Assembly (NCBI GenBank): GCA_018970445.1 | Contig: JAGWWF010000017.1 | Location: forward strand, 1-64,000 | DNA length: 64,000 nucleotides | Reading direction: 5' to 3' | DNA from: Alphaproteobacteria bacterium | Lineage (GTDB): Bacteria; Pseudomonadota; Alphaproteobacteria; Sphingomonadales; Sphingomonadaceae | Part shown: one piece after another, positions 20,435 to 36,386 of the stretch | Numbering within the stretch: position 1 is the stretch's first letter | How the letters are laid out: the number at the start of each line of letters is the position of its first letter | Made by a program: the position numbers and the translations under genes | The notes under the pieces: generated by a model | What the model was told of the DNA's origin: nothing | The model's input: the letters and a program-made list of their open reading frames with translations, nothing else | Databases searched by the model: none

Positions 20435-20503
20435 TTGGCTGCGGGCCGGCATGTGCCGGCCCGTTCCGATGTTTGAGGGAGCCGGCCTCGCCGGGGGAAA
20501 TCG

Positions 20504-21898
20504 ATGAGCCTGATTCAGTTGATACGGATCCTGGTGGCGCGCCGCTGGTTGATTTCCTTTGCGGTGTTCCTGGGCCTGCTGGTGGGGGTGGCCGTTGGCA
20601 ATCTGTTGCCCGCCCGCTATCCCGCCACGGCGCGCGTGCTGATGGACAATTTCAAGCCCGACCCGGTGACGGGCACGGTGCTGAACGCATCGGGCATCAA
20701 GATGTTCATCCGCACCCAGCTGGAGCTGATCAAGGATTATCGCATCGCCGGCGAGGCGGTGGACCGGCTGGGCCTGACCGGCAACGCCAACCTGCTGGCC
20801 ACCTGGCAGGCCGAAACCGGTGGCTATGGCGATTTCCGCCGCTGGCTGGCCGATCGGATCGTCAACAACGTGCAGGTGACCCAGATCGAGAACAGCAACA
20901 TCATGGAGATCACCTATGAAGCCGGCGTGCCCGAAGTGGCGCGGCGGACGGTGAACGCCCTGCGCGATGCCTATATCGACAACAGCCTGAAATTCCGCAC
21001 CGATTCTGCTGGTCGCACCGCCGAATGGTATCGTGAGCAGGCCAGCCGTGCCCTGCGCACCCTGCAAAGCGCCGAAGCGCTGAAGACCAAGTTCGAGCAG
21101 GACAACGGCATCGTGATGACGGCCGCCGGCGAAGCCGAAACCGTGAAGCTGGCCAGCCTGCAGGCCGCGCTGACCGAAGCCCGGTCGAACGCGGGCATCC
21201 AGAATTTCGAAGCGGTGCGCCAGACCACGAGCAGCCCGGTGGTGGATCAGTTGAAGGTGCAACTGGCCACGCTGAATGACCAGATCGAGCAGGCCGCCGA
21301 ACGGCTGGGTGCCCAGCATCCGACCTACATCGCGATGATGGCGCGCCGGGCGCAGCTGGAACGCCAGCTGGTGCGTGAACAGGCCGCGGCCCGTTCCGCC
21401 GGTGCCGCCCAGCTGGGGGCGTCGCGCGGCGGCATCGCGCAGCTGGTGGCCGAATATGAGGCGCAGCGCGCCACGGTGTTTGCCATGAAGGAGAAGCTGG
21501 ACAAGCTGGGGCAGCTGACCAGCGAAGTGGAACTGCGGCGCCAGCAATATGAACAGGCCGCCAAGCGCACCAGCGAACTCCAGCTGGAATCGAACGTGGC
21601 CGACGCCGGCCTGATCGTGCTGGGCGATGCCATGGTCAGCCCGGATCCGACCTTCCCGAACTGGCGCCTGATCCTGCCGCTGGCCGGCGGCATCGGCCTG
21701 GCCATTGGGGTGCTGATGGGCCTGCTGGTGGAACTGCTGAACCGCCGGGTGCGCGGTGCCGAGGATCTCGGCTTTGCCGCGCGGGTGCCGGTGTTTGCGG
21801 TGGTGGCCGATCAGCGGCAACCCGAATGGCGGCGCGTGCTCAAGCGGCTGCTGGCCCGTCGCGGCCGCGATGCGGAACAGCTTCTGCCGGCGCAATAG
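20504..21898 (+). CDS. epsF: chain-length determinant protein (Wzz/GNVR type, EpsF-like)
   Basis: 464 residues, inner membrane with a large periplasmic coiled coil. An N-terminal Wzz domain has a membrane segment (LISFAVFLGLLVGVAVGNLL). Helical coiled segments lie at about 175-380, including the GNVR-like ERLGAQHPTYIAMMARRAQ. The C-terminal membrane segment (LILPLAGGIGLAIGVLMGLL) is followed by a short basic tail. GGGGGAAATCG precedes the ATG. It controls polymer length together with the kinase encoded next. Confidence 0.93.
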   Translation: MSLIQLIRILVARRWLISFAVFLGLLVGVAVGNLLPARYPATARVLMDNFKPDPVTGTVLNASGIKMFIRTQLELIKDYRIAGEAVDRLGLTGNANLLATWQAETGGYGDFRRWLADRIVNNVQVTQIENSNIMEITYEAGVPEVARRTVNALRDAYIDNSLKFRTDSAGRTAEWYREQASRALRTLQSAEALKTKFEQDNGIVMTAAGEAETVKLASLQAALTEARSNAGIQNFEAVRQTTSSPVVDQLKVQLATLNDQIEQAAERLGAQHPTYIAMMARRAQLERQLVREQAAARSAGAAQLGASRGGIAQLVAEYEAQRATVFAMKEKLDKLGQLTSEVELRRQQYEQAAKRTSELQLESNVADAGLIVLGDAMVSPDPTFPNWRLILPLAGGIGLAIGVLMGLLVELLNRRVRGAEDLGFAARVPVFAVVADQRQPEWRRVLKRLLARRGRDAEQLLPAQ

Positions 21899-21941
21899 GC
21901 CCTGCCGGGGCATGACGTGACGGCTGCGCAAGGATTGGTGA

Positions 21942-22862
21942 ATGGACAATAACGAACAGGAAGTCCCCTTCGAGGACGTCGAGCCCGGTGTTGTCGAACG
22001 GGTTCGGGTGGCCGGTGGCGAGCGTTACGATGCGCCGATCCGCGATGTGTTGACGCGGCTGGGCTTTCTCACGCCCGATCAGGTCATGCATGTGACGGCG
22101 CATGCCGCCGAACGTGGGCTTGATTTCGATCAGGCGGCGTTGGAAATCGGTTATCTCACCACCGAGGAACTGGATCGGGCCCGCGAACAGCTGATCAACG
22201 CCATGGCGTTGCAGAATGTCGTGCGGCGGCCGACGTCGGACGAACTGATCGTCATTTCCGATCCCGGTTCGGTGCGGGCGGAATCGATCCGCATGTTGCG
22301 CACCCAGATCATTGCCCAGCACATCAAGAACGGCCGGCGTGGCCTGGCGGTGGTGTCCACCGCCGATGGCCATGGTTGTTCCTATGTCTGCGCCAATCTG
22401 GCGGTCGCGCTGGCCCAGGTGGGTTACAAGATCCTGCTGGTGGATGCCAACATGCGCAGCCCGCGCCAGGATCAGATCTTTGGCCTTGATCCCAATGCGC
22501 CCGGCCTGTCCAGCTTTCTGGCGCTTCAGGTCGCCCGGCCGGAACGGGTGGTGAATGCCAATGTGCTGCCCGGCCTGGCGGTGATCACCGCCGGCCCGCC
22601 GACCAGCCGGCCGCAGGAACTGCTGTCGGGCAACCGCTTCCGCGATGGCGTGAACAGCCTGCTGCGCGAATATGATCTGGTGCTGTTCGATACACCGGCG
22701 GCCAACACCAGTGCCGATGCCTTGAACATCGCAGGGGCCGCGGCCTATGCCCTGATCGTCGGGCGCACCAACCAGAGCTATTACAAGGATGTCAGCCTGC
22801 TGGCGGACCAGTTGGCCTCGTCGCGCTGCGCCGTGGTCGGTTCCGTGCTGAATGACTTCTGA
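21942..22862 (+). CDS. epsG: EpsG-like BY-kinase homologue with altered Walker A
   Basis: 306 residues. Residues about 20-90 resemble the MshE/GspE N-terminal fold (VLTRLGFLTPDQV and LEIGYLTTEELDRA). The ParA/MinD-like kinase fold follows: SIRMLRTQI, the P-loop region STADGHGCSYVCANLAVAL, Walker A' LLVDANMR and Walker B LVLFDTPA. The P-loop lysine expected after GxG is a cysteine (C146); EpsG relatives often carry arginine here. There is no C-terminal tyrosine cluster. It may therefore be a regulatory ATPase without autokinase activity. AAGGA precedes the ATG; the stop overlaps the exosortase gene by 11 bases. Confidence 0.85.
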   Translation: MDNNEQEVPFEDVEPGVVERVRVAGGERYDAPIRDVLTRLGFLTPDQVMHVTAHAAERGLDFDQAALEIGYLTTEELDRAREQLINAMALQNVVRRPTSDELIVISDPGSVRAESIRMLRTQIIAQHIKNGRRGLAVVSTADGHGCSYVCANLAVALAQVGYKILLVDANMRSPRQDQIFGLDPNAPGLSSFLALQVARPERVVNANVLPGLAVITAGPPTSRPQELLSGNRFRDGVNSLLREYDLVLFDTPAANTSADALNIAGAAAYALIVGRTNQSYYKDVSLLADQLASSRCAVVGSVLNDF

Positions 22863-23748
22863 AGTTCGCCTGGCTGCCGTTCCGGTCTGGCCGGACTGGC
22901 GTGGTTTCGTGCGCGGCCACTGGCCGTTGGCGGCCGGGCTGGCGGCTCTGGCGCTGCCCACGCTGTTCAGCCTTGCCAATGGGCCCTGGCAGGAAGAATC
23001 GGGCGTGCATGGGGTGATCGTTCTGGTCACTGGCCTGTGGCTCGTCGTGCGGCGCTGGGGCGACATCGTGGCACGGGCCCGGCCGGGCAATCCGATCGTC
23101 ACCGGGGCGCTGATGCTGCTGGCGTTGCTGTTCTATGTGGCCGGGCGGGCATTTGAATTCATCAGCGTCGAAACCGCAGCGCTGCTGTTGGTTATGGTGG
23201 CAGTGATCCAGCAATATTGGGGCTTTGCGGTGCTGCGGCTGCTGTGGTTCCCGATCTTCTATCTTGGCTTTGTCATACCCTTGCCGGGCTGGTTTCTGGA
23301 TCAGATCACGCTGCCCTTGAAGGAATTCGTTTCGCAACTGGTGACCGACAGCCTGGTCGGTCTGGATTACCCGATCGCGCGCATGGGCGTGACGCTGTAT
23401 GTTGGTGCCTATCAATTGCTGGTCGAAGATGCCTGTGCCGGGCTCAATTCGCTGGTCAGCCTGTCGGCGATCGGGCTGTTCTATGTCTATCTGCTGCGCG
23501 GCTCCAACCCGGCCTATTCGATGCTGCTGCTGGGCATGGTGATTCCGATTGCCATTATCGCCAATTGCGTGCGGGTGGCAGCGCTGGTGCTGATCACCCA
23601 TCATCTCGGCAATGCCTGGGCGCAGGGCTATCTGCACAATTTTGCCGGCATGGTGACATTCGTTTCGGCATTGCTGCTCATCTTCGTGCTGGATTGGGTG
23701 TTGACCCCGCTGCGCAGCCGGCTGGAGCCAAAGGGAACGCCGGCATGA
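22852..23748 (+). CDS. xrtV: exosortase (V type, XrtV-like)
   Basis: 298 residues with about eight hydrophobic segments. The three conserved exosortase catalytic residues are present: C195 in EDACAGLNSL, R241 in NCVRVAAL and H262 in GYLHNFAG. Exosortases are inner-membrane cysteine transpeptidases that recognise PEP-CTERM tails and release or attach proteins. The V type is suggested by the neighbouring EpsI and small accessory protein and by the sphingomonad context; the subtype is an inference. The ATG lies inside the end of the kinase gene (11-base overlap) and the stop overlaps epsI (ATGA). A candidate substrate lies at 55642-56292. Confidence 0.93.
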   Translation: MTSEVRLAAVPVWPDWRGFVRGHWPLAAGLAALALPTLFSLANGPWQEESGVHGVIVLVTGLWLVVRRWGDIVARARPGNPIVTGALMLLALLFYVAGRAFEFISVETAALLLVMVAVIQQYWGFAVLRLLWFPIFYLGFVIPLPGWFLDQITLPLKEFVSQLVTDSLVGLDYPIARMGVTLYVGAYQLLVEDACAGLNSLVSLSAIGLFYVYLLRGSNPAYSMLLLGMVIPIAIIANCVRVAALVLITHHLGNAWAQGYLHNFAGMVTFVSALLLIFVLDWVLTPLRSRLEPKGTPA

Positions 23749-24452
23749 GCGGCCCGACCCGGCGCGACTTTCTGCTCGGCGGGGCACTTGTGGCAGGCTC
23801 CATGGGCGCCGTTGCGTTGACGCCGCGCGGGCGGCTGGTGCTGATGCCGGAAGGCAGGACGCTGAACGAGATCGTGCCTACCCAGATTGGCGACTGGGCG
23901 GAGGTGCCGTCGGCCCAGATCGTGCTGCCCAAGCCCAAGGAAGGGTCCCTGGCCGATCGCCTGTATGGCGACCAGCTCGCACGCCTGTATGAATCGCCGA
24001 CCAGCCTGCCGATCTTTCTGGTGATGGCCTATGGCGAGGTCCAGAACGATGCGCTGCAGTTGCACCGGCCTGAAGTCTGTTATTCGGCCGTGGGCTTTTC
24101 GATCGAGGACGTGCGCATGTCCACGCTGGAAGTGCAGCGCGGGCTGCAATTGCCGGTGCGCGATCTGGTTGCCCGGTCTGAAAGCCGGGTGGAAACCATC
24201 ACCTACTGGACGCGCATCGGCGATGATCTGCCCACCAGCGGCACCGAACAGCGGCTGGTCAAGCTGCGCCAGCAATGGGACGGGTTCATTGCCGACGGCA
24301 TATTGGTGCGTTTGAGCATCCCGGCAGAGCCGTCGCCGCAGGTGCTGGAGACCATGCGCAACTTTGCCCGAACCATGTTGCAATCGGTCAACCCGGTCGA
24401 ACTGCCCACCCTGATCGGCCGCAGATATGCCGACGCGGCAGGTGCCCGGTGA
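23745..24452 (+). CDS. epsI: EpsI-family exosortase-associated protein
   Basis: 235 residues from an ATG overlapping the exosortase stop (ATGA), preceded by AAGGGAA. The open frame continues upstream only as a shadow of the exosortase. The N terminus has a twin-arginine-like signal, TRRDFLLGGALVAGSMG. The EpsI domain contains the conserved HRPEVCY (C112) after VMAYGEVQNDALQL. In many bacteria EpsI is fused to the C terminus of the exosortase; here it is a separate, secreted-looking protein. Its biochemical role is unsettled, but it is needed for exopolysaccharide production in other exosortase loci. Confidence 0.9.
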   Translation: MSGPTRRDFLLGGALVAGSMGAVALTPRGRLVLMPEGRTLNEIVPTQIGDWAEVPSAQIVLPKPKEGSLADRLYGDQLARLYESPTSLPIFLVMAYGEVQNDALQLHRPEVCYSAVGFSIEDVRMSTLEVQRGLQLPVRDLVARSESRVETITYWTRIGDDLPTSGTEQRLVKLRQQWDGFIADGILVRLSIPAEPSPQVLETMRNFARTMLQSVNPVELPTLIGRRYADAAGAR

Positions 24453-24493
24453 TCGCCACCCGCATCGCCGTCACCCTGCCGGTTGGCAATGGA

Positions 24494-24751
24494 TCAATTC
24501 TGATCGAAGGGCTTGAGCACGCGCCAGATGAAACCCACTGTGCCGACGAACAGCAGAACGGCGCCGCCGTGCAGGGCAATCTCACCACTTTTCATGGCCT
24601 CGTTGCCGATGTAATTGGTGACGGCGCAGCCGATGGACGCCACCAGATATTGCCAGAGGTGATCGCGCGGTTCGCCCTGGCTGCGCTGCAGGAACAGCAC
24701 GATCAGGCCGGCAAACGCCATCACCGTCAACCAATCATATGGCGTTTCCAT
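24494..24751 (-). CDS. XrtV sorting-system accessory protein (small membrane protein)
   Basis: 85 residues from the ATG at 24751, eight bases after AAGGAG. The open frame extends upstream, but without a site. It has two or three hydrophobic helices (WLTVMAFAGLIVLFLQRSQ, YLVASIGCAVTNYIGN and the segment around GGAVLLFVGTVGFIW) and short polar ends. Proteins starting METPxDWLTV with an FLQRS-EPRD-LWQY core are known as XrtV system accessories in sphingomonads; I assign it from that remembered pattern and from its position. It is convergent with epsI (41 bp) and divergent from the sugar transferase. Confidence 0.8.
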   Translation of the reverse strand: METPYDWLTVMAFAGLIVLFLQRSQGEPRDHLWQYLVASIGCAVTNYIGNEAMKSGEIALHGGAVLLFVGTVGFIWRVLKPFDQN

Positions 24752-24864
24752 CCCAATCACTCCTTTGTCGCTGCCTCTATACAAGCCGGGCGGGTGTGGC
24801 CATGCTGAATCGGGCGGCGGCTGCGAGAACCAGTAAATTTTTCTTAGCAAAGTTCCAGTGCTAA

Positions 24865-26328
24865 ATGAATTCCGAAAGACCCATTTTGCAGCAATCTGCA
24901 CCTGATGCCGTCGGCAGCCGCAAGGGCGTGCCGCTGGGCCTGGCGATCACGTTGGGCCGGGTGGTGGAGTTTCTGGCGGTTGCGATCTCCGGCCTGTTGC
25001 TGATTGCGCTGGGCATCTGGGATTTCGGCAGCACGCTCGATACCCACAGCCGCGTGGTGCTGGTGGGGGCGGCGGCCTACGCCGTGCTGGCCGAAAGCAT
25101 GGGCGCCTATGACATTGATGCGCAGTTTTCGGTGCGCAAGGGCTGGACCCGGGTGATCATGGCCTGGCTGCTGACGGCGGTGTTTCTGGTCACGCTGGGC
25201 TATCTGCTCAAGGAATCGGATCAGGTTTCGCGCGGCTGGGCGATCAGCTGGGTGGGGCTGGCCAGCGCGTCCCTGTGCGTCGCGCGCGCTGCTGGCGTGA
25301 TCGGCGTGCGGCGGCTGAAAACCCGCGGCACCTTCAACGAACGGGTGGCGATCTTTGGCACGGGCCAGCAGGGCCTGCGCTTTGCCCAATATGTCCAGTC
25401 GCATGACCGGTTGACGATCACACTGGTCGGCATGTTCGACGATCGCTCCCCGGAACGGCTGCCGCCCGATGTGGCCGGGGTGCCGGTGCTGGGCAATCTT
25501 TCGGCGCTGATCGAGATGATCCGCGAAGGCCTGGTCGATCAGGTGGTGGTGGCACTGCCCTGGGCGGCGGAACAGCGGTTGCAGGATGTGGTGACGCGCC
25601 TGGCGCTCACCCCGGTGAAGGTCCGGCTGGCGCCCGATCTGGCCGCCTTCACCTATGCCCGCCAGCCGGTGGTGATCCTGGGCGACGTGCCGGTGATGAC
25701 CCTGTTCGACCGGCCGATCAGTGGCCTTTCGGCGCTGATCAAGACCATCGAGGACAAGCTGCTGACCACCCTGATCCTGGCGATGATCTGGCCGATCCTG
25801 GCGTTGATCGCCATTGCCATCAAGCTGGATTCATCGGGGCCAGTGCTGTTCCGCCAGCCGCGCGAAGGCTTCAACAACAGCACGTTCAACTGCTTCAAGT
25901 TCCGATCAATGTATCACAACCAGCTGGAATTCAAGAATATCAACCAGGCCACGCGCGACGATCCGCGCGTGACGCGGGTGGGTCGCTTCCTGCGCAAGAG
26001 CAGTCTGGATGAGCTGCCGCAGCTGTTCAACGTGCTGCTGGGTGACATGAGCCTGGTTGGCCCGCGCCCGCACGCGCCATCAACCCGTGCCGGTGGCCGG
26101 CTGTTTTCCGAAGTGGTGCAAAGCTATGCCGCGCGTCACAAGGTGAAGCCCGGCATCACCGGCTGGGCCCAGGTGTGCGGCTGGCGCGGCGAAACCGATA
26201 CCGAAGACAAGCTGATCAAGCGCTTCGAGCATGACCTTTATTATATCGACAACTGGTCGATCTGGCTGGATTTCTACATCCTGGTCCGCACCGTCGGTGC
26301 GGTGCTGCTGCCCAAGAACGCCTTTTGA
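24865..26328 (+). CDS. undecaprenyl-phosphate glucose phosphotransferase (WcaJ-type)
   Basis: 487 residues. Four N-terminal membrane helices (about 20-155) are followed by a CoA-binding-like Rossmann region ([15 protein letters not shown]) and one more membrane segment. The C-terminal bacterial sugar-transferase domain has [34 protein letters not shown] and [18 protein letters not shown]. It starts exopolysaccharide repeat units by moving hexose-1-phosphate to undecaprenyl phosphate. An AT-rich stretch (24829-24864) precedes it, and no clear ribosome-binding site is visible before the ATG at 24865, so a later start cannot be excluded. Confidence 0.93.
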
Positions 26329-26342: not shown

Positions 26343-26408
26343 CTGCCATTGGCAGCAGGGCGGGCAGAATGTCGCATCAGCATGAAAATGTCCGTTATGG
26401 TATTGGCG

Positions 26409-26425
26409 GTGACATAATATTTCAC
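26409..26425. promoter_or_regulatory. AT-rich dyad upstream of propionyl-CoA synthase
   Basis: GTGA (26409-26412) and TCAC (26422-26425) flank the nine-base ACATAATATT-type centre, which contains a TAATAT resembling a -10 box. This is the most AT-rich part of the 176-bp gap before the large gene and lies about 80 bases before its start. The arms are only four bases, so a regulator site is a guess; a promoter location is plausible. Confidence 0.3.
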
Positions 26426-26504
26426 TAAGCGCGGGCTCCATACAGTTTTCCTTTCCGTTGGTGTCGCCATGCCGCGCCGCCGACAGTTGGCAGAGGGCAA
26501 AGCC

Positions 26505-29500
26505 ATGTACGATCCCGCCACTCCGTTGCGTCCCCCGGTGCCCCGGCCCGAACACAACCCGGTGCGGACCCGTGCCGACTGGCAGGCCATGCGCGCGGCC
26601 GTGCTGGCCGATCCGGGCGCGTTCCACGGCAGGATTGCCGCGCGCAACCTGCACTGGCTGGTGGACATGGACGGCCGCAAGGCGTGGGTGAGCCATGAAG
26701 GCGATGGCCGCTGGGCCGGCTGGGATGCCGAGACGGCGGCCCCGGTGGCCGCCGATCTGGGTGTCGATTTTGCGCCCTGGGCCCGCGCCTTCAACGCCGA
26801 TGATGCGCCCAATTTCCGCTGGTTCGAAGGCGGGTTCACCAATGCCGCCTTCAACGAACTGGATCGGCACGTGCTGGCCGGCCATGGCGCCGAAGCCGCC
26901 TTCATCTTTGAAGGCGATCGCTGGGATCTGGCCGCCAACAACGGCCGCGGTGCGCCGGTGGATTGCCTCACCGTCTCCCGCCGGCAGCTGCTGCTGGAAG
27001 CGGCCAAGTGCGCCATCGCGCTCACTCGGCTGGGCCTGAAGGCGGGTGATCGCATCGCGCTGAACATGCCAAACGTGCCGGCGCAGCTGTACTGGAGCGA
27101 GGGCGCAAAGCGCATCGGTGTGATCTACACGCCGGTGTTCGGCGGCTTTTCCGACAAGACCCTGTCGGACCGGATCCACGATGCCGGCGCCCGCATCGTC
27201 ATCACCGCCGATGGTGGCTATCGCAACGCGCAGGTGGTGCCGTTCAAGACGGCCTATACCGATCCGGCGCTGGACAATTATGTGCCGGTGACCGTGGCCC
27301 TGCGCCTGCTGGCCGAGCGGCTGGACGGCAGCGATCTTGGCTTGCCGCAGGCCACCCGCGCCGCCATGGCCGGCATCGTTGCCACGGCGCTGCAGGGCGA
27401 AGTGACGGTGGAGCGCGGCGACGTGATGCGCGGCCTGGGCCGGGCGCTGGCCGAACTGGGCAAGGACGGCCTGGTGGATGCCGCCCAATCGGCGCGCATC
27501 CGCATCGCCATTGCCGAAGCGCTGGTGAGCACCCCGCCGCGCGTGGAGGCGGTGATCGTTGCCAATCACACCCATGTGCCCGATCTGGTGTGGCGGGATC
27601 GCGACGTGTGGGGCCATGATCTCACCAATGCCGCGCTGGCCGAGATTCTGGCCGCCGCCGGCCTGGCTGACGAAGCGGCGCTGCACGCGCTGGACGATGA
27701 AGCCTTTGTGGCGGCGCTGTGGAAAGCGTCGAAGCCGCTGCCGGTCGATGCCGAATATCCGTTGTTCTTCATCTACACGTCGGGTTCCACCGGCAAGCCC
27801 AAGGGCGTTGTCCATGTCCATGGCGGCTATGCCAGCGGCATCATGGAAACCATGACCGTTGCCTTTGATGCGCGCCCCGGCGACACGATCTTCGTGGTGG
27901 CCGATCCGGGCTGGATCACCGGCCAGAGCTACATGATCGCGGCGGCGCTCTTGTCCCGCGTGACCACCGTGCTGGCCGAAGGCTCCCCGGTGTTCCCGCA
28001 CGCCGGGCGCTTTGCCGCGATGATCGAGAATCACGGTGTGACGATCTTCAAGGCCGGGGTCACCTTCCTGAAGGCGGTGATGACCGATCCGCAGAATCTG
28101 AAGGATATCCAGGGGTACGATCTGTCGAAGCTCAGGGTCGCCACCTTCTGTGCCGAACCCTGCTCGCCGCCGGTGCAGGCCTTCGGCATGGATCATGTCA
28201 CGCCGCAATATATCAACAGCTATTGGGCGACCGAGCATGGCGGCATCGCCTGGACGCATTTTTATGGCAATGGCGATTTCCCGCTGGCCGCCGATGCCCG
28301 CACCTTCCCGCTGCCGTGGATCGTTGGCGATGTGTGGGTGGAGGATGAGGCCGGCGACAAGGCCGCGCGCGTGCTGCTGACCCGCGAGGGCAGTGACGGC
28401 GTGACGTGGCGCAAGGCCGGACAAGGCGAGAAGGGCGAGATCATCATCGCCGCCCCCTATCCCTATCTGGCGCGCACCGTGTGGGGCGATGCCGACAATT
28501 TCCGGGTGGAGGGCGGCCGCGTGGCTGGCGGCTGGGCCGGCGATGCGTCGCGCTGGCGCGATGGTTACTGGGGCCGCTGGCAGGGCGTGTGGGCCTATAC
28601 CCAGGGCGATTTTGCGGTGCAGGGCGATGATGATGGCTTTTCGCTGCACGGCCGCAGCGATGATGTGATCAATGTTTCCGGCCACCGCATGGGCACGGAA
28701 GAGATTGAGGGCGCGATCCTGCGCGACAAGGCGCTGAATCCGGAAAGCCCGGTGGGCAACGTGCTGGTGGTGGGCGCGCCGCACCGCGAAAAGGGCCTCA
28801 CCCCGCTGGCCTTCATCACGCCCGCACCGGGGCAGGTGATCACCCGCGACGACGAACGCCGGCTGGCCGATCTGGTGCGCAGCGAAAAGGGTGCCGTGGC
28901 GGTGCCGGGCGACTTCCTGACGGTGAGCCAGTTCCCCGAAACCCGCAGCGGCAAATATATGCGCCGCATGGTCCGCGCGCTGGTGGAAGGCACGGCGCTG
29001 GGCGATGTGACAACCCTGAAGAACCCGGAAAGCCTGGACGAGCTGCGCCGCGTGATCGGTGCGTGGGAACGCAAGCAGCGACTGTCCGAAGATCAGGACA
29101 TCTTTGATCGCTACCGTTATTTCCGCATCCAGTATAATCTGGTCGCACCGGGCAGGAAGGTGGCGACGGTGTTCATCACCAACCCGCCGGTCAATGCGCT
29201 GAACGAGCGCGCCATCGATGAACTGGTGATCGTGGTGGAACATCTGTCGCGGCGCGAGGATGTGGCCGCGGTGGTGTTCACCGGCGACGGCACCGCCAGC
29301 TTTGTGGCTGGCGCCGATATCCGCCAGTTCCTGGAGGAAATCCACACGGTTGAGGAAGCCCGCGTGTTGCCGGCCAACGCCCAGTTGGCGTTCGGCAAGA
29401 TCGAGCAGATGGGCAAGCCCTGCGTGGCGGCCATCCAGGGTGTGGCGCTGGGCGGCGGCATGGAATTTGCGCTGGCCTGCCATTATCGGGTGGCCGAAAG

Positions 29501-31997
29501 CCATGCGCGCTTTGGCCAGCCGGAAATCCGCCTGCGCCTGTTGCCCGGTTATGGCGGCACCCAGCGGCTGCCGCGCCTGCTCACCGATCGGCGCGGGCCG
29601 GACGGGATGCTGGATGCGCTTGATCTGATCCTGGGTGGGCGCAGCGTGGCAGCTGCCGATGCGCTGGAAATGGGCGCGATTGATGCAGTGGCCGATGGCG
29701 CGACCGATGCGCTCAGCCTTGCCCATGCCGCGGTGCGCGAATTTGTCCGGCTGGGCGATACCAGCCATCTGGGCCGGGCCTGGGCCGAACGGCGCAAGGC
29801 GGCAAGGACCGCCTGGCAACATGAAGGCCATGTCGATCTGGATCATGCGCTGGCCGATGCGCACGTGCAGCGCATCCTCAAGCAGCTGGACTGGGCCGGT
29901 CGTGGCCAGGCCGGCGCGCGGGCCATCGATGCCATCCGCACCGGCTGGACGCAGGGCATGGCGGCCGGCCTTGCCCGTGAAGCCGAATTGTTTGCGCAGG
30001 CCGTGGTGGATCCCGATGGCGGCAAGACCGGCATCCGCCTGTTCATGGACAAGAAGGCACCGCCGTTGCCGGTGCGCCGCGATGGCGTGCATGTCGAGGC
30101 GGAGTTCCAGGCACGCGCCACGCGGCTGGAAGCCGCCGGCGATCTGCTGCCGGTGGGTGCGCCCTTCTTCCCGGGGGTGACACCGATTCCGGGCCATCAA
30201 TATGGCTTTGGCATCGCGCGCAACCCGGAAACCGGCGCGCCGCAGTTTGGCCCGCCGGCCAGCCATGAAAAGCAGCTGATCGTGCCAACGCCGCAGCCGG
30301 AGCCGAACGAGGCGCTGGTCTATCTGCTCAGTTCCGAAGTGAACTTCAACGATATCTGGGCCTTGACCGGCATTCCCGTCTCCCCGTTCGACAATCATGA
30401 AGAGGATGTGCAGCTCACCGGTTCGGGCGGCCTGGCGCTGGTCGCGGCGCTGGGCAGCGAGGTGCGCGCGCAAGGCCGGTTGAAGGTGGGCGACATGGTG
30501 GCGGTCTATTCCGGCACCTCTGACCTGCTTTCCCCGCAGGCCGGGCGCGATCCGATGTATGCCGATTTCGCCATCCAGGGTTATGAGACCAAATCGGGCA
30601 GCCATGCCCAGTTCCTCACCGTGCAGGCGCCGCAGCTGCATCCCGTGCCCGGCGATCTGACGCTGGAACAGGCCGGTTCCTATATCCTCAACCTCGGCAC
30701 CATCTGGCGCTGTCTCTACACCACGCTGGAGATTGTGGGCGGCAAGACCATCTTCATCGAAGGCTCGGCCACCGGCACCGGGCTGGATGCGCTGAAATCG
30801 GCCAAGGCCAGCGGCCTTGCGGTGACCGGCCTAGTTTCGAGCCCGACTCGCGCCGAATATGTGAAGGGCAAGGGCGCGGTGGGCGCGCTCGACCGCACCG
30901 ATCCGCGGTTCAAGGCGCTGTTCACGCCGGTGCCCGATGGCACGAAGGCGGATTGGGCGGCGTGGGAAGCCGCCGGCGAGGCACTGGTGGCCGAATACAA
31001 GGCGATCAATGGCGGCAAATTGGCTGATTATGCCGTGTCCCACGCTGGTGAAACCGCCTTCCCGCGCAGCTTCCAGCTGCTGGGCAATGGCGGCGTGCTG
31101 GCCTTTTATGGCGCGTCTTCTGGCTATCACCTCAGCTTCATGGGCAAGCGGGGCGGTTCCGATCCGGTCAGCATGCTGGCCAGGGCGGGGGCCCGCGGCG
31201 GTGAGGCCGTGCTGATCTTCTATGGCCCCGGCACCAGGGCGCTGGCCGACGAGACGGGGCTGGAGATGATCGAGGCGGCGCGCGGGCTGGGCTGCCGCAT
31301 CGTGGTTGTCACCAGCACCGACGGCCAGCGCGAGTTCATCCTGAGCCTGGGTTTTGAGGATGCGGTGGCCGGCGTGGTCAGCCTGGAAGGCATCAAGCGG
31401 CGGGAAGGGGCCAATTTCGAATGGCCCGACACCATGCCGCGCCTGCCGGTGGCGCGCGAGGATATCGAAGCCTTCCGCGAAGCCGTGCGCCAGTTCCAGG
31501 ACAAGACGCTGAAACCCTTTGGCAATGCAGTGGGCAAGCTGCTGCGCAGCCCCGACAATCCGCGCGGCAACCCGGACATCGTGCTGGAACGGGCGGGGCA
31601 GGACACGCTGGGCGTGACCACCGCCATGGTGAAGCCATTCACCGGCCGCGTGGTTTACTGCGAGGACATGGCCGGGCAGCGTTACAATTTCTATGCCCCG
31701 CAGGTGTGGACGCGCCAGCGCCGCATCATCATGCCGGTGGCGGAAATTCGCGGCACCCACCTGTGCAACGCCTATGAAGTCACCCGCATGAACGACATGA
31801 TCGCCGCCGGCATCCTGGACGTGACCGAGCCGACGGTGGTGCCGTGGGAGGGCCTGCCGGACGCCCACCAGAGCATGTGGGACAATCGCCACACCGGGGC
31901 GACCTATATCGTCAACCACGCGTTGCCGGCCATGGGGCTGCGCGGGCGTGATGAACTCTATGAGGCGTGGGCCGCAACCCAGGGGCAAGGGGAATGA
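26505..31997 (+). CDS. pcs: trifunctional propionyl-CoA synthase
   Basis: 1830 residues from the ATG at 26505 (GAGGG seven bases before; the in-frame ATG at 26469 has no site). Three fused domains: (1) acyl-CoA synthetase, about 1-860, with YTSGSTGKPKG from Y424, YWATEHGG, GRSDDVINVSGHRMG and the A10 lysine K817 in SGKYMRR; (2) enoyl-CoA hydratase, about 880-1190, with FVAGADIRQF (933-942) and paired catalytic glutamates E987 and E1007 spaced as in crotonase; (3) enoyl-CoA (acrylyl-CoA) reductase of the zinc-free MDR type, about 1270-1830, with GSATGTG near 1420. The order and length match Chloroflexus propionyl-CoA synthase, which turns 3-hydroxypropionate, CoA, ATP and NADPH into propionyl-CoA. 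The stop overlaps mcr (ATGA). Confidence 0.95.
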   Translation: MYDPATPLRPPVPRPEHNPVRTRADWQAMRAAVLADPGAFHGRIAARNLHWLVDMDGRKAWVSHEGDGRWAGWDAETAAPVAADLGVDFAPWARAFNADDAPNFRWFEGGFTNAAFNELDRHVLAGHGAEAAFIFEGDRWDLAANNGRGAPVDCLTVSRRQLLLEAAKCAIALTRLGLKAGDRIALNMPNVPAQLYWSEGAKRIGVIYTPVFGGFSDKTLSDRIHDAGARIVITADGGYRNAQVVPFKTAYTDPALDNYVPVTVALRLLAERLDGSDLGLPQATRAAMAGIVATALQGEVTVERGDVMRGLGRALAELGKDGLVDAAQSARIRIAIAEALVSTPPRVEAVIVANHTHVPDLVWRDRDVWGHDLTNAALAEILAAAGLADEAALHALDDEAFVAALWKASKPLPVDAEYPLFFIYTSGSTGKPKGVVHVHGGYASGIMETMTVAFDARPGDTIFVVADPGWITGQSYMIAAALLSRVTTVLAEGSPVFPHAGRFAAMIENHGVTIFKAGVTFLKAVMTDPQNLKDIQGYDLSKLRVATFCAEPCSPPVQAFGMDHVTPQYINSYWATEHGGIAWTHFYGNGDFPLAADARTFPLPWIVGDVWVEDEAGDKAARVLLTREGSDGVTWRKAGQGEKGEIIIAAPYPYLARTVWGDADNFRVEGGRVAGGWAGDASRWRDGYWGRWQGVWAYTQGDFAVQGDDDGFSLHGRSDDVINVSGHRMGTEEIEGAILRDKALNPESPVGNVLVVGAPHREKGLTPLAFITPAPGQVITRDDERRLADLVRSEKGAVAVPGDFLTVSQFPETRSGKYMRRMVRALVEGTALGDVTTLKNPESLDELRRVIGAWERKQRLSEDQDIFDRYRYFRIQYNLVAPGRKVATVFITNPPVNALNERAIDELVIVVEHLSRREDVAAVVFTGDGTASFVAGADIRQFLEEIHTVEEARVLPANAQLAFGKIEQMGKPCVAAIQGVALGGGMEFALACHYRVAESHARFGQPEIRLRLLPGYGGTQRLPRLLTDRRGPDGMLDALDLILGGRSVAAADALEMGAIDAVADGATDALSLAHAAVREFVRLGDTSHLGRAWAERRKAARTAWQHEGHVDLDHALADAHVQRILKQLDWAGRGQAGARAIDAIRTGWTQGMAAGLAREAELFAQAVVDPDGGKTGIRLFMDKKAPPLPVRRDGVHVEAEFQARATRLEAAGDLLPVGAPFFPGVTPIPGHQYGFGIARNPETGAPQFGPPASHEKQLIVPTPQPEPNEALVYLLSSEVNFNDIWALTGIPVSPFDNHEEDVQLTGSGGLALVAALGSEVRAQGRLKVGDMVAVYSGTSDLLSPQAGRDPMYADFAIQGYETKSGSHAQFLTVQAPQLHPVPGDLTLEQAGSYILNLGTIWRCLYTTLEIVGGKTIFIEGSATGTGLDALKSAKASGLAVTGLVSSPTRAEYVKGKGAVGALDRTDPRFKALFTPVPDGTKADWAAWEAAGEALVAEYKAINGGKLADYAVSHAGETAFPRSFQLLGNGGVLAFYGASSGYHLSFMGKRGGSDPVSMLARAGARGGEAVLIFYGPGTRALADETGLEMIEAARGLGCRIVVVTSTDGQREFILSLGFEDAVAGVVSLEGIKRREGANFEWPDTMPRLPVAREDIEAFREAVRQFQDKTLKPFGNAVGKLLRSPDNPRGNPDIVLERAGQDTLGVTTAMVKPFTGRVVYCEDMAGQRYNFYAPQVWTRQRRIIMPVAEIRGTHLCNAYEVTRMNDMIAAGILDVTEPTVVPWEGLPDAHQSMWDNRHTGATYIVNHALPAMGLRGRDELYEAWAATQGQGE

Positions 31998-34900
31998 ACG
32001 CGATGACCAAGACCGAGGGCGGGGTGCCGGTGCCGGCCCCCGAGGCTGAACGCCACGGCCGGCTGGCCGGCAAGGTGGCACTGATCACCGGCGCTGCGGG
32101 CAATCTGGGCGGCAGCATCGTGCGGCGTTACCTGGCCGAAGGCGCCACCGTGGTGATGAGCGGCCGCGACGCCAAGCGCACCACCGCCGCGATGGAAGCC
32201 GCCGTGGCCGATGCCGGCGGCGCTGAAGGGTTCGCAGGGGCCAGCATCGTCACCATGGACGGTGCCGACATCGAATCGGTGCGCGCCGGCATTGCCGAAG
32301 TGGTGGCCCGCCATGGCCGCATCGACATATTGGTGAACAATGCCGGTTCGGCCGGGCCCAAGCAGGTGCTGGGCGCGCTGCCGCTGTCGGCGCAGGAACT
32401 GGACGGCACGCCCGACAGCGAGACGGTGGGCGATGCCGCCCGCAACATCATGGTGGTCGCATGGAATCTGGTGCGCGCCGCCGCCCCGGCCATGGGCGAG
32501 GGTGGCAGCATCATCAATGTCTCCACCATCTTTTCGCGCACCGATTATTTCGGCCGCGCCGCCTATACGGTGCCGAAGGCGGCGCTGAACATCCTGTCGA
32601 AGCGGCTGGCGCGCGAACTGGGGCCGCGCGGCATCAGGGTGAACACGCTGTATCCCGGCCCGATTGCTTCGGAACGCATCCGCACCGTGTTTGCCGCCAT
32701 GGATGGCCTGAAGGGCGATGCGCCCGGCAGCACCGCCAATCAGTTCTTTGACCTGATGGCGCTGGAGCGCAGCGTTGCGGGCGAAGCCAAGGCCAAGACC
32801 TTCCCGACGCCGGCCGATATCGCCAACGCCTGTGTGTTCCTGGGATCGGACGAAAGCGCCGCCTTTGCCGCGCATGATTTCGAAGTGACGCACGGCATGG
32901 CTGTGCCGCAGGAATCGGCATCGGAATTCCTGCACCGGCCCGACATGCGCGCCATCGATGGCGATGGCCGTTCCATCCTGGTCGCCGCCGGCAACCAGCT
33001 GGATGATGGCCTGGCCATCGCTGGCCTGTTCGCCGGCCAGGGCGCGCGCGTGCTGCTGGGTTATCATGCCCAATCGGCGCTGGATGATGCGCAGGACCGG
33101 CTCCCGGCCGGGGTGACGGCGGTGCGCTTTGCGCGCCACGATCATGTTGCCATGGATGCGGCGCTGGCGGAATTTTCGGCGGGCGGGGCCATTGATGGCG
33201 CGGTGATCCTGCCCACGCGCGGCCCCGGCTATTTTACCGGTGCGCTGGGTGCGGCGACCGATGCCGATGTCGAACGCTTTGTCGACGATGAACTGGAAGG
33301 CGCGATCGCGCTGGCGCGCACGCTGGATCGTTACTGGCAGCGCGCCACCGATCTGGCCGCCGATCCGCGCGTGCTGTTCATCACCAACGGCGATGATGGC
33401 GCCGGCAATCTGTGGGCCGATGTGGAACGCGCCGCCATCGAGGAACTGTTGCGCGTGTGGCGCGACGAGGCCCGCGTGGCCCATGCGCAGGGCAAGACGC
33501 CACGGGTGATCTGGGGCAACCAGATCGTGCGTTATGGCAATGGCGAGGTGGAAAACCGCGATTTCGCTGCCGGCCATGCCGCCCGCCTGCTGTTGACCGA
33601 CCGGCAGGTGGAACCGATCAATCTCTATCTGCCGGCCAGCATCGCCAAGGCCACCGGCGCCCGCCGCGCGCTGGTGGGCACGGCCGAGAACATCACCGGG
33701 CTGCATCTGGGCAAGGTGGCGCTGATCACCGGCGGTTCGGCCGGCATCGGCGGTGCCCTGGCGCGGCTGCTGGCCCTGGCCGGGGCCAAGGTGATGATGG
33801 TGGCCCGCCGCGAATCCGAACTGGATGCCGCGCGGGATCGGATCGTGGGCGAATTGCAGGACATCGGCTTTGCCGGGGTGGAACGCCGGGTGCGCACCCT
33901 GGCCGGCATCGACGTGGCCGACATGGCCTCCCTGCGCCGCGCCGTTGATGAAACGCTCAAGGCCTTTGGCCGCATCGATTATCTGATCAACAATGCCGGC
34001 ATTTCGGGCGCCGAGGAGATGGCGGTTGACATGGACGTGGGCGCGTTCCGCCACACCCAGTTCGCCAATCTCATTTCCAACTATGCCCTGATGCAGATGG
34101 TGGTGCCGCTGATGCGCCAACAGGGCAGTGGCTATATCCTCAATGTTTCCAGTTATTTCGGCGGGGAAAAATTCCTTGCCGTGTCCTATCCCAACCGCAC
34201 CGATTATGCCGTTTCCAAATCCGGCCAGCGCGCGCTGGTCGAATCCATGGCCCGGCATCTGGGCCCGCAGATCCAGATCAACGCCATCGCCCCCGGCCCG
34301 GTGGATGGCGACCGGTTGGCCGGGCTGGGCGGCAAGCCCGGCCTGTTCGATCGGCGCGGGCGGTTGATCCTGGAAAACAAGCGGCTGAATGCCGTGCACG
34401 CCGCCGTGATCAAATCGGTGCGCGGCGGCGCAGCCGTGGCGCAGGTGCTGGCCCGGCTGGCCCGCAACGACAGCGTGCAGCTGAGCCATGACCGGTCAAA
34501 CCCGCAAGCCCTGCGCGATCTGGCGCTGGCCTGCGCCCGCGAGGGTGATGAACGCTGCTGCTGGGACCGGTTCATCCTGACGCCGGTGCTGGCGGCCAAG
34601 CTGCTGAAGCGGTTGCGGCTGGGCGGCTGGTTGATCGGCACCGATTGGCAGGCGCGCGATGAAAACGACTGGCTGCTGCGCGTGCCGCCCGATGATGTGC
34701 CCTGGCTGCCGGTGGCGCAGATCGGGCGCGAGGCGGCCAAGGTGCGCGGCGGCGTCTTGAGCCAGCTGCATCTGGGCAAGATGCCGACCGAAACCGAAGT
34801 GGCGCAGGCGACCGTGTTCTTCCTGGCGGACCGCGCCGTGTCGGGTGAAACCTTCATGCCGTCGGGCGGCCTGAATGTGGAGCGCAGCCACACCGAACGC

Positions 34901-35653
34901 GAGTTGTTCGGCAGCCCCAAGGCCGAACGGCTGGCCCAGATGGGCGGCAAGACCGTGTGGCTGATCGGTGAACATCTGGCCGATTATCTGGGCGCGGCCG
35001 CGCAGGGTTTTCTGGATACCGATGTGGCGCGCGTGGTGTTGATCACCGCCAGCGCGGCCGGGGCCGAAGCGATCCGCAGCCATATCGGCCAGGGCGGCAG
35101 CCGGGTGGAAACCCTGGTGATCGATGGCGACATCGAAACCGCGATGGATCAGGCGTTGGCCAGTTGGGGCCACCCGACCACCATTGTTTCAACGCCGCTC
35201 GCCGCGCTGCCCGACCGGCTGTTCGACGGCGATGCGCCGCTGGATGGCGCCGGCTTTGCCGAGGTGGTGGAGCAGAATCTGACCCATCATTTCCGGATCA
35301 GCCGCAAGGTGTCGCTGTTCGATAATTGCCAGCTGGTGCTGGTGTCGCCCGATGTGCCGATGGGCGAAGGGGCCAAGGGCGCGTTTGCCCTGGCCAATTT
35401 CGTCAAGACGACGCTGCACGCCTTCACCGCCACCATCGCGGTGGAGAATGAGCGGCTGGTGCACGAAGTGGCGGTGAACCAGATCAACCTGACGCGCCGG
35501 GTGCGTTCGGAAGAACCGCGCAGCGACGCCGAACACAGCGAGGAGGTGCGCCGCTTTGCCCGTGCCGTGCTGCTGGCTGGCGCGCCGCTGCCCGATGCCG
35601 AAGACAGCCGTTATCGCAGCCGCATCTATCGCGGCATGAGCCTGACGGTGTGA
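31994..35653 (+). CDS. mcr: bifunctional malonyl-CoA reductase (malonyl-CoA to 3-hydroxypropionate)
   Basis: 1219 residues from an ATG overlapping the pcs stop (ATGA). It contains two extended SDR halves. The N-terminal half has GAAGNLGG (G33-G40), NVSTIF, Y191 and K195 (malonate-semialdehyde reductase half in the known enzyme). The C-terminal half has GGSAGIGG from G580, NVSSYFGG, Y738 and K742 (the CoA-releasing malonyl-CoA reductase half). Each half is followed by an SDR-like pseudo-domain without a catalytic triad. Length and arrangement fit the Chloroflexus-type bifunctional enzyme and not the unrelated archaeal malonyl-CoA reductase. It uses NADPH twice. With pcs it forms a two-gene unit; the next gene is convergent. 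Confidence 0.94.
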   Translation: MNAMTKTEGGVPVPAPEAERHGRLAGKVALITGAAGNLGGSIVRRYLAEGATVVMSGRDAKRTTAAMEAAVADAGGAEGFAGASIVTMDGADIESVRAGIAEVVARHGRIDILVNNAGSAGPKQVLGALPLSAQELDGTPDSETVGDAARNIMVVAWNLVRAAAPAMGEGGSIINVSTIFSRTDYFGRAAYTVPKAALNILSKRLARELGPRGIRVNTLYPGPIASERIRTVFAAMDGLKGDAPGSTANQFFDLMALERSVAGEAKAKTFPTPADIANACVFLGSDESAAFAAHDFEVTHGMAVPQESASEFLHRPDMRAIDGDGRSILVAAGNQLDDGLAIAGLFAGQGARVLLGYHAQSALDDAQDRLPAGVTAVRFARHDHVAMDAALAEFSAGGAIDGAVILPTRGPGYFTGALGAATDADVERFVDDELEGAIALARTLDRYWQRATDLAADPRVLFITNGDDGAGNLWADVERAAIEELLRVWRDEARVAHAQGKTPRVIWGNQIVRYGNGEVENRDFAAGHAARLLLTDRQVEPINLYLPASIAKATGARRALVGTAENITGLHLGKVALITGGSAGIGGALARLLALAGAKVMMVARRESELDAARDRIVGELQDIGFAGVERRVRTLAGIDVADMASLRRAVDETLKAFGRIDYLINNAGISGAEEMAVDMDVGAFRHTQFANLISNYALMQMVVPLMRQQGSGYILNVSSYFGGEKFLAVSYPNRTDYAVSKSGQRALVESMARHLGPQIQINAIAPGPVDGDRLAGLGGKPGLFDRRGRLILENKRLNAVHAAVIKSVRGGAAVAQVLARLARNDSVQLSHDRSNPQALRDLALACAREGDERCCWDRFILTPVLAAKLLKRLRLGGWLIGTDWQARDENDWLLRVPPDDVPWLPVAQIGREAAKVRGGVLSQLHLGKMPTETEVAQATVFFLADRAVSGETFMPSGGLNVERSHTERELFGSPKAERLAQMGGKTVWLIGEHLADYLGAAAQGFLDTDVARVVLITASAAGAEAIRSHIGQGGSRVETLVIDGDIETAMDQALASWGHPTTIVSTPLAALPDRLFDGDAPLDGAGFAEVVEQNLTHHFRISRKVSLFDNCQLVLVSPDVPMGEGAKGAFALANFVKTTLHAFTATIAVENERLVHEVAVNQINLTRRVRSEEPRSDAEHSEEVRRFARAVLLAGAPLPDAEDSRYRSRIYRGMSLTV

Positions 35654-35672: not shown

Positions 35673-36386
35673 TCAGGCCGAGAGCCGCCGCTCCACCGCC
35701 GCCCACAGGGCATTGATGGCGGTGGCGGCCGGCCCGCTGGCGACGGGCTGGCGGCTGGCGGCCATGGCTTCGACCGCGCTGGCATAAGGGATGACCGGCC
35801 ATTCGGGATGGGCCGCCAGCGCCGCCTTGTGCAGCGCCTTGCGGCGATCGGCCATGGAAAACACCGGCAGCAACGGCGGCGGTGATTTCATTTCGTCGGC
35901 CAGATGCGCCTCCAGCTGGGCCAGGGCCCGGCCGGAAAGCGGCGATGGAATGGCCGGCACCACGATCAGATCGGCGGCGCGGAACATCTGATCCGCCAGC
36001 TCGGTCAGGCCGGGCGGGCAATCAAGGATGACCCGGTCATAGCGGTCTTCCAGCGGTTTCAGCGCGCGTTTCAGGCGCTTCTCGCTGTCTTCGCCGGCCA
36101 GATCGGCCTCCAGCCGGCGCAGCGAGCGATCAGCGGCCAGCACATCAAGATTGGCAAAGGCCGATGGCTGCACCAGATCGGCCAGGCTGGCGGCGGCCAG
36201 GTGCTTGCGGGCCTTGGCCCCGGCCTTGGGTTCAACGCCCAGCAGCCAGCCCGATGCGCCCTGCGGGTCCAGATCCCACAACAGGGTGCGGCGGCCGCTG
36301 CGGGTGGCGGCGCCATGGGCCAGGCTGGCGGCAAGCGAGGATTTGCCCACCCCGCCCTTGGCGCTGAACAGGGCGATGACCTTCAT
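35673..36386 (-). CDS. ParA/MinD-family ATPase
   Basis: 237 residues. Deviant Walker A SAKGGVGKSSLAASL with the signature lysine, Walker A' LLWDLDPQGASGW and Walker B VILDCPPGLTELAD. Such ATPases dimerise on DNA or membranes to place cargo; without a partner ParB or cargo gene the role is open. It is the last gene of the minus-strand cluster plsX-fabH-ihfA-merR, six bases after merR, and converges on mcr with a 19-bp gap. It differs from the MipZ homologue at 48583, so the cell has at least two such ATPases. Confidence 0.88.
   Translation of the reverse strand: MKVIALFSAKGGVGKSSLAASLAHGAATRSGRRTLLWDLDPQGASGWLLGVEPKAGAKARKHLAAASLADLVQPSAFANLDVLAADRSLRRLEADLAGEDSEKRLKRALKPLEDRYDRVILDCPPGLTELADQMFRAADLIVVPAIPSPLSGRALAQLEAHLADEMKSPPPLLPVFSMADRRKALHKAALAAHPEWPVIPYASAVEAMAASRQPVASGPAATAINALWAAVERRLSA

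What the first reader, a model, noticed from the sequence alone, without database searches (positions are those of the whole stretch)
26505..35653. Complete two-gene malonyl-CoA to propionyl-CoA module (pcs-mcr) in a sphingomonad
Seen: a three-domain 1830-aa protein (acyl-CoA synthetase, crotonase, MDR reductase) and a two-SDR 1219-aa protein overlap by ATGA, and the catalytic residues I could check are present (K817, E987/E1007, Y191/K195, Y738/K742). Known: these architectures are propionyl-CoA synthase and bifunctional malonyl-CoA reductase of the Chloroflexus 3-hydroxypropionate bi-cycle; from memory, homologues occur in some marine erythrobacters and gammaproteobacteria. Inferred: the host can reduce malonyl-CoA to propionyl-CoA, using about four NADPH in total, for CO2 co-assimilation, redox balancing or as a source of propionyl-CoA, without the full bi-cycle. 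Physiological role in such hosts is not settled.
Basis: partly seen in the sequence, partly recalled or inferred. Interest (0 to 1): 0.88.

Follow-up and report, generated by a model that had tools for sequence, protein, structure and literature searches.

The report
Phototroph-linked malonyl-CoA to propionyl-CoA genes
The window carries an intact pair of known enzymes that turn malonyl-CoA into propionyl-CoA in a light-harvesting freshwater bacterium, and in a sample of its bacterial order the pair was seen only in species that also have photosynthesis genes, which points to a light-fed way of building cell carbon from acetyl-CoA and CO2.

Summary
In detail: pcs (26505-31997) and mcr (31994-35653) overlap by ATGA, are intact, and match solved propionyl-CoA synthase (6eqo) and bifunctional malonyl-CoA reductases nearly end to end, with catalytic residues aligned. 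The host is a Sandarakinorhabdus-like phototroph: pufL/M, propionyl-CoA carboxylase, epimerase and methylmalonyl-CoA mutase are present; isocitrate lyase and crotonyl-CoA carboxylase/reductase were not found. The pair is a known kind, already reported in Erythrobacter, Porphyrobacter and other proteobacteria. What I add: of 386 sampled genomes of the order, mcr occurs in 32, all 32 with a photosynthetic reaction centre; 0 of 310 without one have it. An RpoB tree needs about nine gains or losses, pcs sits upstream of mcr in 32 of 32, the two gene trees agree at genus level and both reject one genus as a single clade, so the pair probably moved as a unit. In 20 of 32 genomes accA, a subunit of the enzyme making malonyl-CoA, lies downstream of mcr. 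Best role: light-powered acetyl-CoA plus CO2 assimilation into succinyl-CoA, not autotrophy. Nothing was assayed.

The parts
26505..31997 (+). pcs: propionyl-CoA synthase, 1830 aa; acyl-CoA synthetase about 89-848, crotonase about 885-1145, MDR enoyl-CoA reductase about 1220-1827
   Evidence: (6eqo_A, residues 21-1827, 2817 bits)
31994..35653 (+). mcr: bifunctional malonyl-CoA reductase, 1219 aa; N half alcohol dehydrogenase (T178, Y191, K195), C half CoA-acylating reductase (Y732, R735, Y738, K742, R774, L784, R788, R1154)
   Evidence: residue roles from PMC10470521 abstract and passages; positions matched by eye on the printed alignments
31994..31997 (+). ATGA stop-start overlap of pcs and mcr
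26403..26428 (+). block 5' of pcs similar by eye in the five mcr-bearing genomes of the host's genus code; possible promoter/operator; function unknown
   Evidence: upstream sequences; only match in window
24865..26328 (+). upstream neighbour: undecaprenyl-phosphate glucose phosphotransferase, beside an exopolysaccharide/exosortase V cluster; not part of the pathway
35673..36386 (-). downstream convergent neighbour: ParA/BcsQ-like ATPase; no same-strand third gene follows mcr directly here

Best explanation
pcs and mcr form a two-gene unit that carries out the first half of the 3-hydroxypropionate route. MCR reduces malonyl-CoA with two NADPH to 3-hydroxypropionate; PCS activates it with ATP and CoA, dehydrates and reduces it (one NADPH) to propionyl-CoA (reactions recalled from the known enzymes). 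The host's propionyl-CoA carboxylase, epimerase and B12-dependent mutase then give succinyl-CoA. Net: acetyl-CoA plus two CO2 to a C4 acid, an anaplerotic and CO2 co-assimilating route that costs ATP and NADPH. Shown here: intact genes, homology, aligned active sites, purifying selection, presence of the downstream enzymes, no detected isocitrate lyase or crotonyl-CoA carboxylase/reductase in the host, and restriction to phototrophs in the sample. Inferred: that light-derived energy pays for it and that acetyl-CoA is the main substrate.
For: Near end-to-end matches to solved PCS and MCRs and aligned residues. Host has pufL/M, PCC alpha with the PCC_BT domain plus beta, MCM with its B12-binding domain, epimerase above cut-off; no isocitrate lyase at E <= 1e-30; no crotonyl-CoA carboxylase/reductase above cut-off, the best of two sub-threshold matches being the PCS reductase domain itself. 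32 of 32 mcr genomes are reaction-centre positive against 44 of 354 others. mcr needs 9 changes on an RpoB tree of 79 genomes, 8 forced by starred branches; the one sampled congener without a reaction centre, G339, also lacks mcr. accA lies downstream of mcr in 20 of 32 genomes from five genus codes. In print: a Porphyrobacter strain raises its 3-hydroxypropionate genes by day (PMC10674011, passages).
Against: No direct regulatory link: PpsR-like TGT-N12-ACA in 0 of 32 upstream regions, shuffles 1.1. accA is not beside mcr in the window's own group (5 genomes), in g10 (3), in g39 (1), or in three g3 genomes. Three mcr genomes also have isocitrate lyase, and 33 of 76 phototrophs show none of mcr, isocitrate lyase or crotonyl-CoA carboxylase/reductase, so the pair is neither needed nor the only answer. 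mcr against isocitrate lyase is not a significant exclusion (Fisher p 0.23; 0.34 among phototrophs). The Fisher value for mcr against reaction centre ignores relatedness, and the tree holds only 4 reaction-centre-negative genomes, so no relatedness-corrected test of the link was made. No activity was measured.
Confidence: 0.68

Rival explanations
1. Redox valve: the pair's main job is to burn excess NADPH and acetyl-CoA from phototrophic or carbon-rich growth, with propionyl-CoA a by-product that is stored, for example in polyhydroxyalkanoate with odd-chain units, or excreted.
For: Three NADPH consumed per turn (recalled) and restriction to phototrophs fit equally well.
Against: The host holds the propionyl-CoA to succinyl-CoA enzymes, and accA near mcr in 20 of 32 genomes looks like biosynthetic supply. 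These tools cannot separate sink from assimilation; polyhydroxyalkanoate genes were not searched.
Confidence: 0.17
2. Full autotrophic 3-hydroxypropionate bi-cycle as in Chloroflexus.
For: First-cycle enzymes and PCC, epimerase and mutase are present; a paper on cyanobacterial bloom aggregates attributes a 3-hydroxypropionate bicycle to such phototrophs (PMC11089705, passages).
Against: [quoted passage not shown] The host's only HpcH/CitE-family match is a 288-aa CitE-like protein, 161 bits to citE (cut-off 443), 132 to RipC (375) and 46 to a haloarchaeal malyl-CoA lyase model (500). PMC10674011 states that a relative with the same key enzymes lacks a full pathway (passage). Mesaconyl-CoA transferase and hydratase were not tested here.
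Confidence: 0.07
3. Assimilation or detoxification of external 3-hydroxypropionate, or of acrylate, by PCS, with MCR working in the oxidative direction towards malonate semialdehyde or malonyl-CoA.
For: PCS takes up 3-hydroxypropionate and passes through acryloyl-CoA (recalled).
Against: MCR is kept with PCS in 32 of 32 and accA, a subunit of the malonyl-CoA-making enzyme, is the recurrent third gene; the phototrophy link would be unexplained.
Confidence: 0.05

Closest known systems
Propionyl-CoA synthase of Erythrobacter sp. NAP1 (PDB 6eqo; that 6eqo is the NAP1 enzyme is recalled, the table names the molecule acetyl-coenzyme A synthetase)
   Same: Same three fused domains, residues 21-1827, 2817 bits; same ligase lysine and hydratase glutamates
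   Different: Sequence divergence only; no architectural difference seen
Bifunctional malonyl-CoA reductase of Porphyrobacter dokdonensis (PDB 6k8s-6k8w; that these entries are this enzyme is recalled; PMC10470521 discusses its two half-structures)
   Same: Both halves match along their length
   Different: None noted beyond sequence
Roseiflexus and Chloroflexus MCR and PCS of the 3-hydroxypropionate bi-cycle
   Same: Full-length matches 8hi4 and 8hjw and the same catalytic residues (which entry is which species is recalled)
   Different: In Chloroflexus aurantiacus mcr (Caur_2614) and pcs (Caur_0613) are far apart in locus numbering (PMC3150298, passage), here they overlap; second cycle not shown in the host
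Porphyrobacter sp. ULC335 and Erythrobacter NAP1 partial 3-hydroxypropionate route
   Same: Partial pathway in an aerobic anoxygenic phototroph, proposed for CO2 co-assimilation (PMC10674011, passages)
   Different: Host here is Sandarakinorhabdus-like; no accA beside mcr. Gene order in those two strains was not examined

Membership tests
Propionyl-CoA synthase (trifunctional) | Fused acyl-CoA synthetase, enoyl-CoA hydratase and MDR enoyl-CoA reductase in one chain | tested here: met
Propionyl-CoA synthase (trifunctional) | Ligase lysine and both hydratase glutamates | tested here: met
   K817, E987, E1007
Propionyl-CoA synthase (trifunctional) | Converts 3-hydroxypropionate to propionyl-CoA with ATP, CoA and NADPH | not testable with these tools
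   needs an assay
Bifunctional malonyl-CoA reductase | Full-length tandem SDR arrangement with catalytic SDR1 and SDR3 | tested here: met
Bifunctional malonyl-CoA reductase | SDR1 Thr-Tyr-Lys, SDR3 Tyr-Arg and Tyr-Lys, substrate residues equivalent to R785, L795, R799, R1164 of Roseiflexus | tested here: met
   T178, Y191, K195; Y732, R735, Y738, K742; R774, L784, R788, R1154; against PMC10470521 (abstract and passages)
[quoted passage not shown]
   needs an assay
Complete autotrophic 3-hydroxypropionate bi-cycle | PCC, epimerase and mutase downstream of propionyl-CoA | tested here: met
Complete autotrophic 3-hydroxypropionate bi-cycle | Malyl-CoA/citramalyl-CoA lyase | tested here: inconclusive
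   one HpcH/CitE-family match, a 288-aa CitE-like protein below the cut-offs of three named families; best solved matches are citrate-lyase beta-like chains, malyl-CoA lyase 4l9y fourth
Complete autotrophic 3-hydroxypropionate bi-cycle | Mesaconyl-CoA C1-C4 transferase and mesaconyl-CoA hydratase | not tested
   no search spent on them
Glyoxylate bypass or ethylmalonyl-CoA pathway as alternative | Isocitrate lyase or crotonyl-CoA carboxylase/reductase in the host | tested here: not met
   no isocitrate lyase at E <= 1e-30; no crotonyl-CoA carboxylase/reductase above cut-off in G000

The most novel reading that the evidence does not exclude
pcs-mcr, often with accA, is a transferable cassette of aerobic anoxygenic phototrophy in Sphingomonadales: it is gained and lost repeatedly but only where a reaction centre is present, because only light-fed cells can afford to carboxylate acetyl-CoA twice and reduce it with three NADPH, in place of the glyoxylate or ethylmalonyl-CoA routes. 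It would be a phototrophy-dependent anaplerotic pathway and not a remnant of an autotrophic cycle.
Probability: 0.4. Interest if true: 0.62.

Novelty: new member of a known kind. Interest (0 to 1): 0.42.

Why it matters
The enzymes are known, but why aerobic phototrophs that are not thought to grow autotrophically keep half of the Chloroflexus cycle is unsettled. A link to the reaction centre without exception in the sample (32 of 32 mcr genomes have one; 0 of 310 genomes without one have mcr), repeated gain or loss, probable transfer as a pair and a frequent accA partner turn this into a testable claim: light pays for CO2-dependent acetyl-CoA assimilation. Sandarakinorhabdus, with a species cultured from cyanobacterial aggregates (cited in PMC11089705, passage), would be a tractable place to test it.

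Tried and rejected
PpsR control of pcs: TGT-N12-ACA in 0 of 32 upstream regions, no sign of direct regulation. Shared promoter motif across genera: AT-rich blocks with GCA...TGC near -100 recur in several g3 genomes and palindromic GCAATAATATTGC in G105 and G233, but no pattern I tried covers the set; left open. Replacement of isocitrate lyase by mcr as a rule: not supported. Hitchhiking with the photosynthesis genes: where mcr and pufLM lie on one contig (12 of 32 genomes) they are 75-131 kb apart in 4 and over 1.2 Mb apart in 8, so no tight linkage, though loose clustering in those four is not excluded (a binomial estimate gives 0.011, with a threshold chosen after seeing the data). Plasmid carriage: no match in the plasmid collection at 1e-60. 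Spread outside the order: in a phylum-wide draw of 398 genomes only two, both of the host's family, match at 1e-100; the draw contains no carrier outside the family, though print reports gammaproteobacterial ones. Dedicated second accA: not decided; the mcr-side AccA of G105 and the one accA found in the host (C37) group together, the host's on a long branch, and I had no genome searches left to look for second copies.

One search, a first RpoB tree, was wrong (16 rows on a branch of 6.17, which I put down to reading the opposite strand) and is discarded, where strands were taken. Its count of 12 changes is not used. One genome of the 80 asked (G002) gave no rpoB and is absent from the tree. 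The tree holds the other 75 reaction-centre-positive genomes of the draw but only 4 negative ones, so it counts mcr changes among phototrophs and does not by itself test the link. G297 (accA in two pieces) was dropped from the AccA tree. The single lyase was first scanned as its 208-aa matched stretch and, on checking, again as the whole 288-aa frame; the conclusion did not change.
Full report
What is there. Two forward genes, 26505-31997 and 31994-35653, overlap by ATGA and translate without internal stops to 1830 and 1219 residues. Pfam finds AMP-binding, ECH_1 and zinc-type ADH domains in the first and two adh_short stretches in the second. phmmer against the PDB gives 6eqo_A (2817 bits, residues 21-1827) for the first and full-length 8hi4 and 8hjw plus the 6k8s and 6k8v halves for the second. 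K817, E987 and E1007 of PCS and T178, Y191, K195, Y732, R735, Y738, K742, R774, L784, R788 and R1154 of MCR align, read by eye, with the catalytic and binding residues of solved enzymes (residue roles of Roseiflexus MCR from the abstract and passages of PMC10470521; those of PCS-type ligases and hydratases recalled). dN/dS against four congeners is 0.09-0.15.

Host. The window is C27 of a 3.03 Mb, 45-contig assembly. The host carries pufL/M. It has PCC alpha with the PCC_BT domain and PCC beta in one locus and a mutase with its B12-binding domain, and an epimerase above the family cut-off (77 of 80 genomes examined do). It has no isocitrate lyase at E <= 1e-30 and no crotonyl-CoA carboxylase/reductase above cut-off, its two weaker matches being the PCS reductase domain (154 bits) and an 81-bit stretch with a stop inside. 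One HpcH/CitE-family lyase is present; as a whole 288-aa frame it stays below the cut-offs of citE, RipC and a malyl-CoA lyase model, and its best solved matches are citrate-lyase beta-like chains with malyl-CoA lyase 4l9y fourth. RuBisCO, mesaconyl-CoA transferase and mesaconyl-CoA hydratase were not searched.

Distribution. In 386 genomes drawn from the order, MCR (E <= 1e-120) occurs in 32, the Photo_RC family in 76 and isocitrate lyase (E <= 1e-30) in 69. All 32 MCR genomes are Photo_RC positive; 44 of the 354 others are (naive Fisher 4.5e-26, which ignores relatedness). PCS lies directly upstream of MCR in 32 of 32. The same-genus genome G339 lacks both Photo_RC and MCR. On an RpoB tree of 79 genomes (the 76 Photo_RC-positive ones less G002, which gave no rpoB, plus 4 negatives; quick search, SH-aLRT only) MCR needs 9 changes, 8 forced by starred branches, and 8 when only Photo_RC-positive rows are counted. 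MCR and PCS trees agree at genus level: both place g3's G205, G207 and G284 beside g10 and the other 14 g3 genomes with g2 and g16, while RpoB holds the 17 g3 genomes together; within g3 the fine branching differs between the trees. An AU test rejects g3 as one clade for both genes (p 8e-6 and 7e-7). That is best read as transfer of the pair as a unit at least once; old paralogy with loss is not excluded. Among the 76 phototrophs 32 have MCR, 11 isocitrate lyase (3 shared), 3 crotonyl-CoA carboxylase/reductase, and 33 none of these, so MCR is one of several solutions. In a phylum-wide draw of 398 genomes only 2, both from the host's family, match.

A third gene. accA lies downstream of mcr in 20 of 32 genomes from genus codes g3, g2, g16, g28 and g14: in 19 the aligned stretch starts between -3 and +29 nt from the mcr stop, in G105 about 2 kb on; in G297 it is in two pieces. 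The two copies scanned, from G280 and G105, score above the NCBIfam accA cut-offs of NF004344 and TIGR00513. It is not within the fetched stretch in the five genomes of the host's group, the three of g10, g39, or G205, G207 and G284. AccA is a subunit of the enzyme that makes malonyl-CoA, the MCR substrate, so the arrangement supports flow from acetyl-CoA. Whether it is a second copy was not tested. One paper search for accA with malonyl-CoA reductase, propionyl-CoA synthase and operon returned only the Chloroflexus genome paper; that does not show the arrangement to be unpublished.

Regulation. No PpsR-type site lies in the 350 bp upstream of pcs in any of 32 genomes. The five mcr genomes of the host's group share a similar block (26403-26428 in the window) of unknown function. 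A published Porphyrobacter strain raises 3-hydroxypropionate genes by day (PMC10674011, passages).

Prior knowledge. Erythrobacter NAP1 PCS is characterised (cited in PMC11599936, passages; the primary paper is not held). PMC9802188 (passages) notes detection of MCR and PCS in alpha- and gammaproteobacteria, and Burkholderiales genomes with the pathway and predicted photosynthesis. PMC10239486 (passages) reports association of anoxygenic photosynthesis with the 3-hydroxypropionate cycle across communities and names a Sandarakinorhabdus bin as potentially mixotrophic. PMC11089705 (passages) attributes the bicycle to bloom-associated phototrophs with one marker missing. Nine paper searches were made, in an open-licence library only. 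So the finding is a new member of a known kind; restriction to phototrophs across repeated gain or loss and the accA partner are the additions, and I did not find them stated in the listings and passages I saw.

Verdict. Identity of the two enzymes: very likely. Role: most likely light-supported acetyl-CoA and CO2 assimilation to succinyl-CoA, with a redox-valve role as the main rival. Autotrophy by a full bi-cycle is unlikely but not fully tested.

Noticed in passing
L081 12671-13594; likewise in the mcr loci of 19 other genomes: accA downstream of mcr in 20 of 32 genomes (5 genus codes), not in the window's own group; in two pieces in G297.
   Followed up: partly
window 19664-26328: Genes resembling EpsE/F/G exopolysaccharide proteins, exosortase V (XrtV, above cut-off) and an undecaprenyl-phosphate glucose phosphotransferase upstream of pcs.
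   Followed up: no
window 35673-36386 (-): ParA/BcsQ-like ATPase gene converging on mcr, 20 bp from its stop.
   Followed up: no
window 26403-26428: Block upstream of pcs, similar by eye in the five mcr genomes of the genus group, holding an imperfect palindrome GTGACATAATATTTCAC; only match in the window.
   Followed up: partly
genomes G281, G065, G203, G207: mcr lies 75-131 kb from pufLM in these four, over 1.2 Mb away in the eight other genomes with both on one contig.
   Followed up: partly
L060 11093-11674: A HicB-family gene sits just downstream of methylmalonyl-CoA mutase in the host.
   Followed up: no
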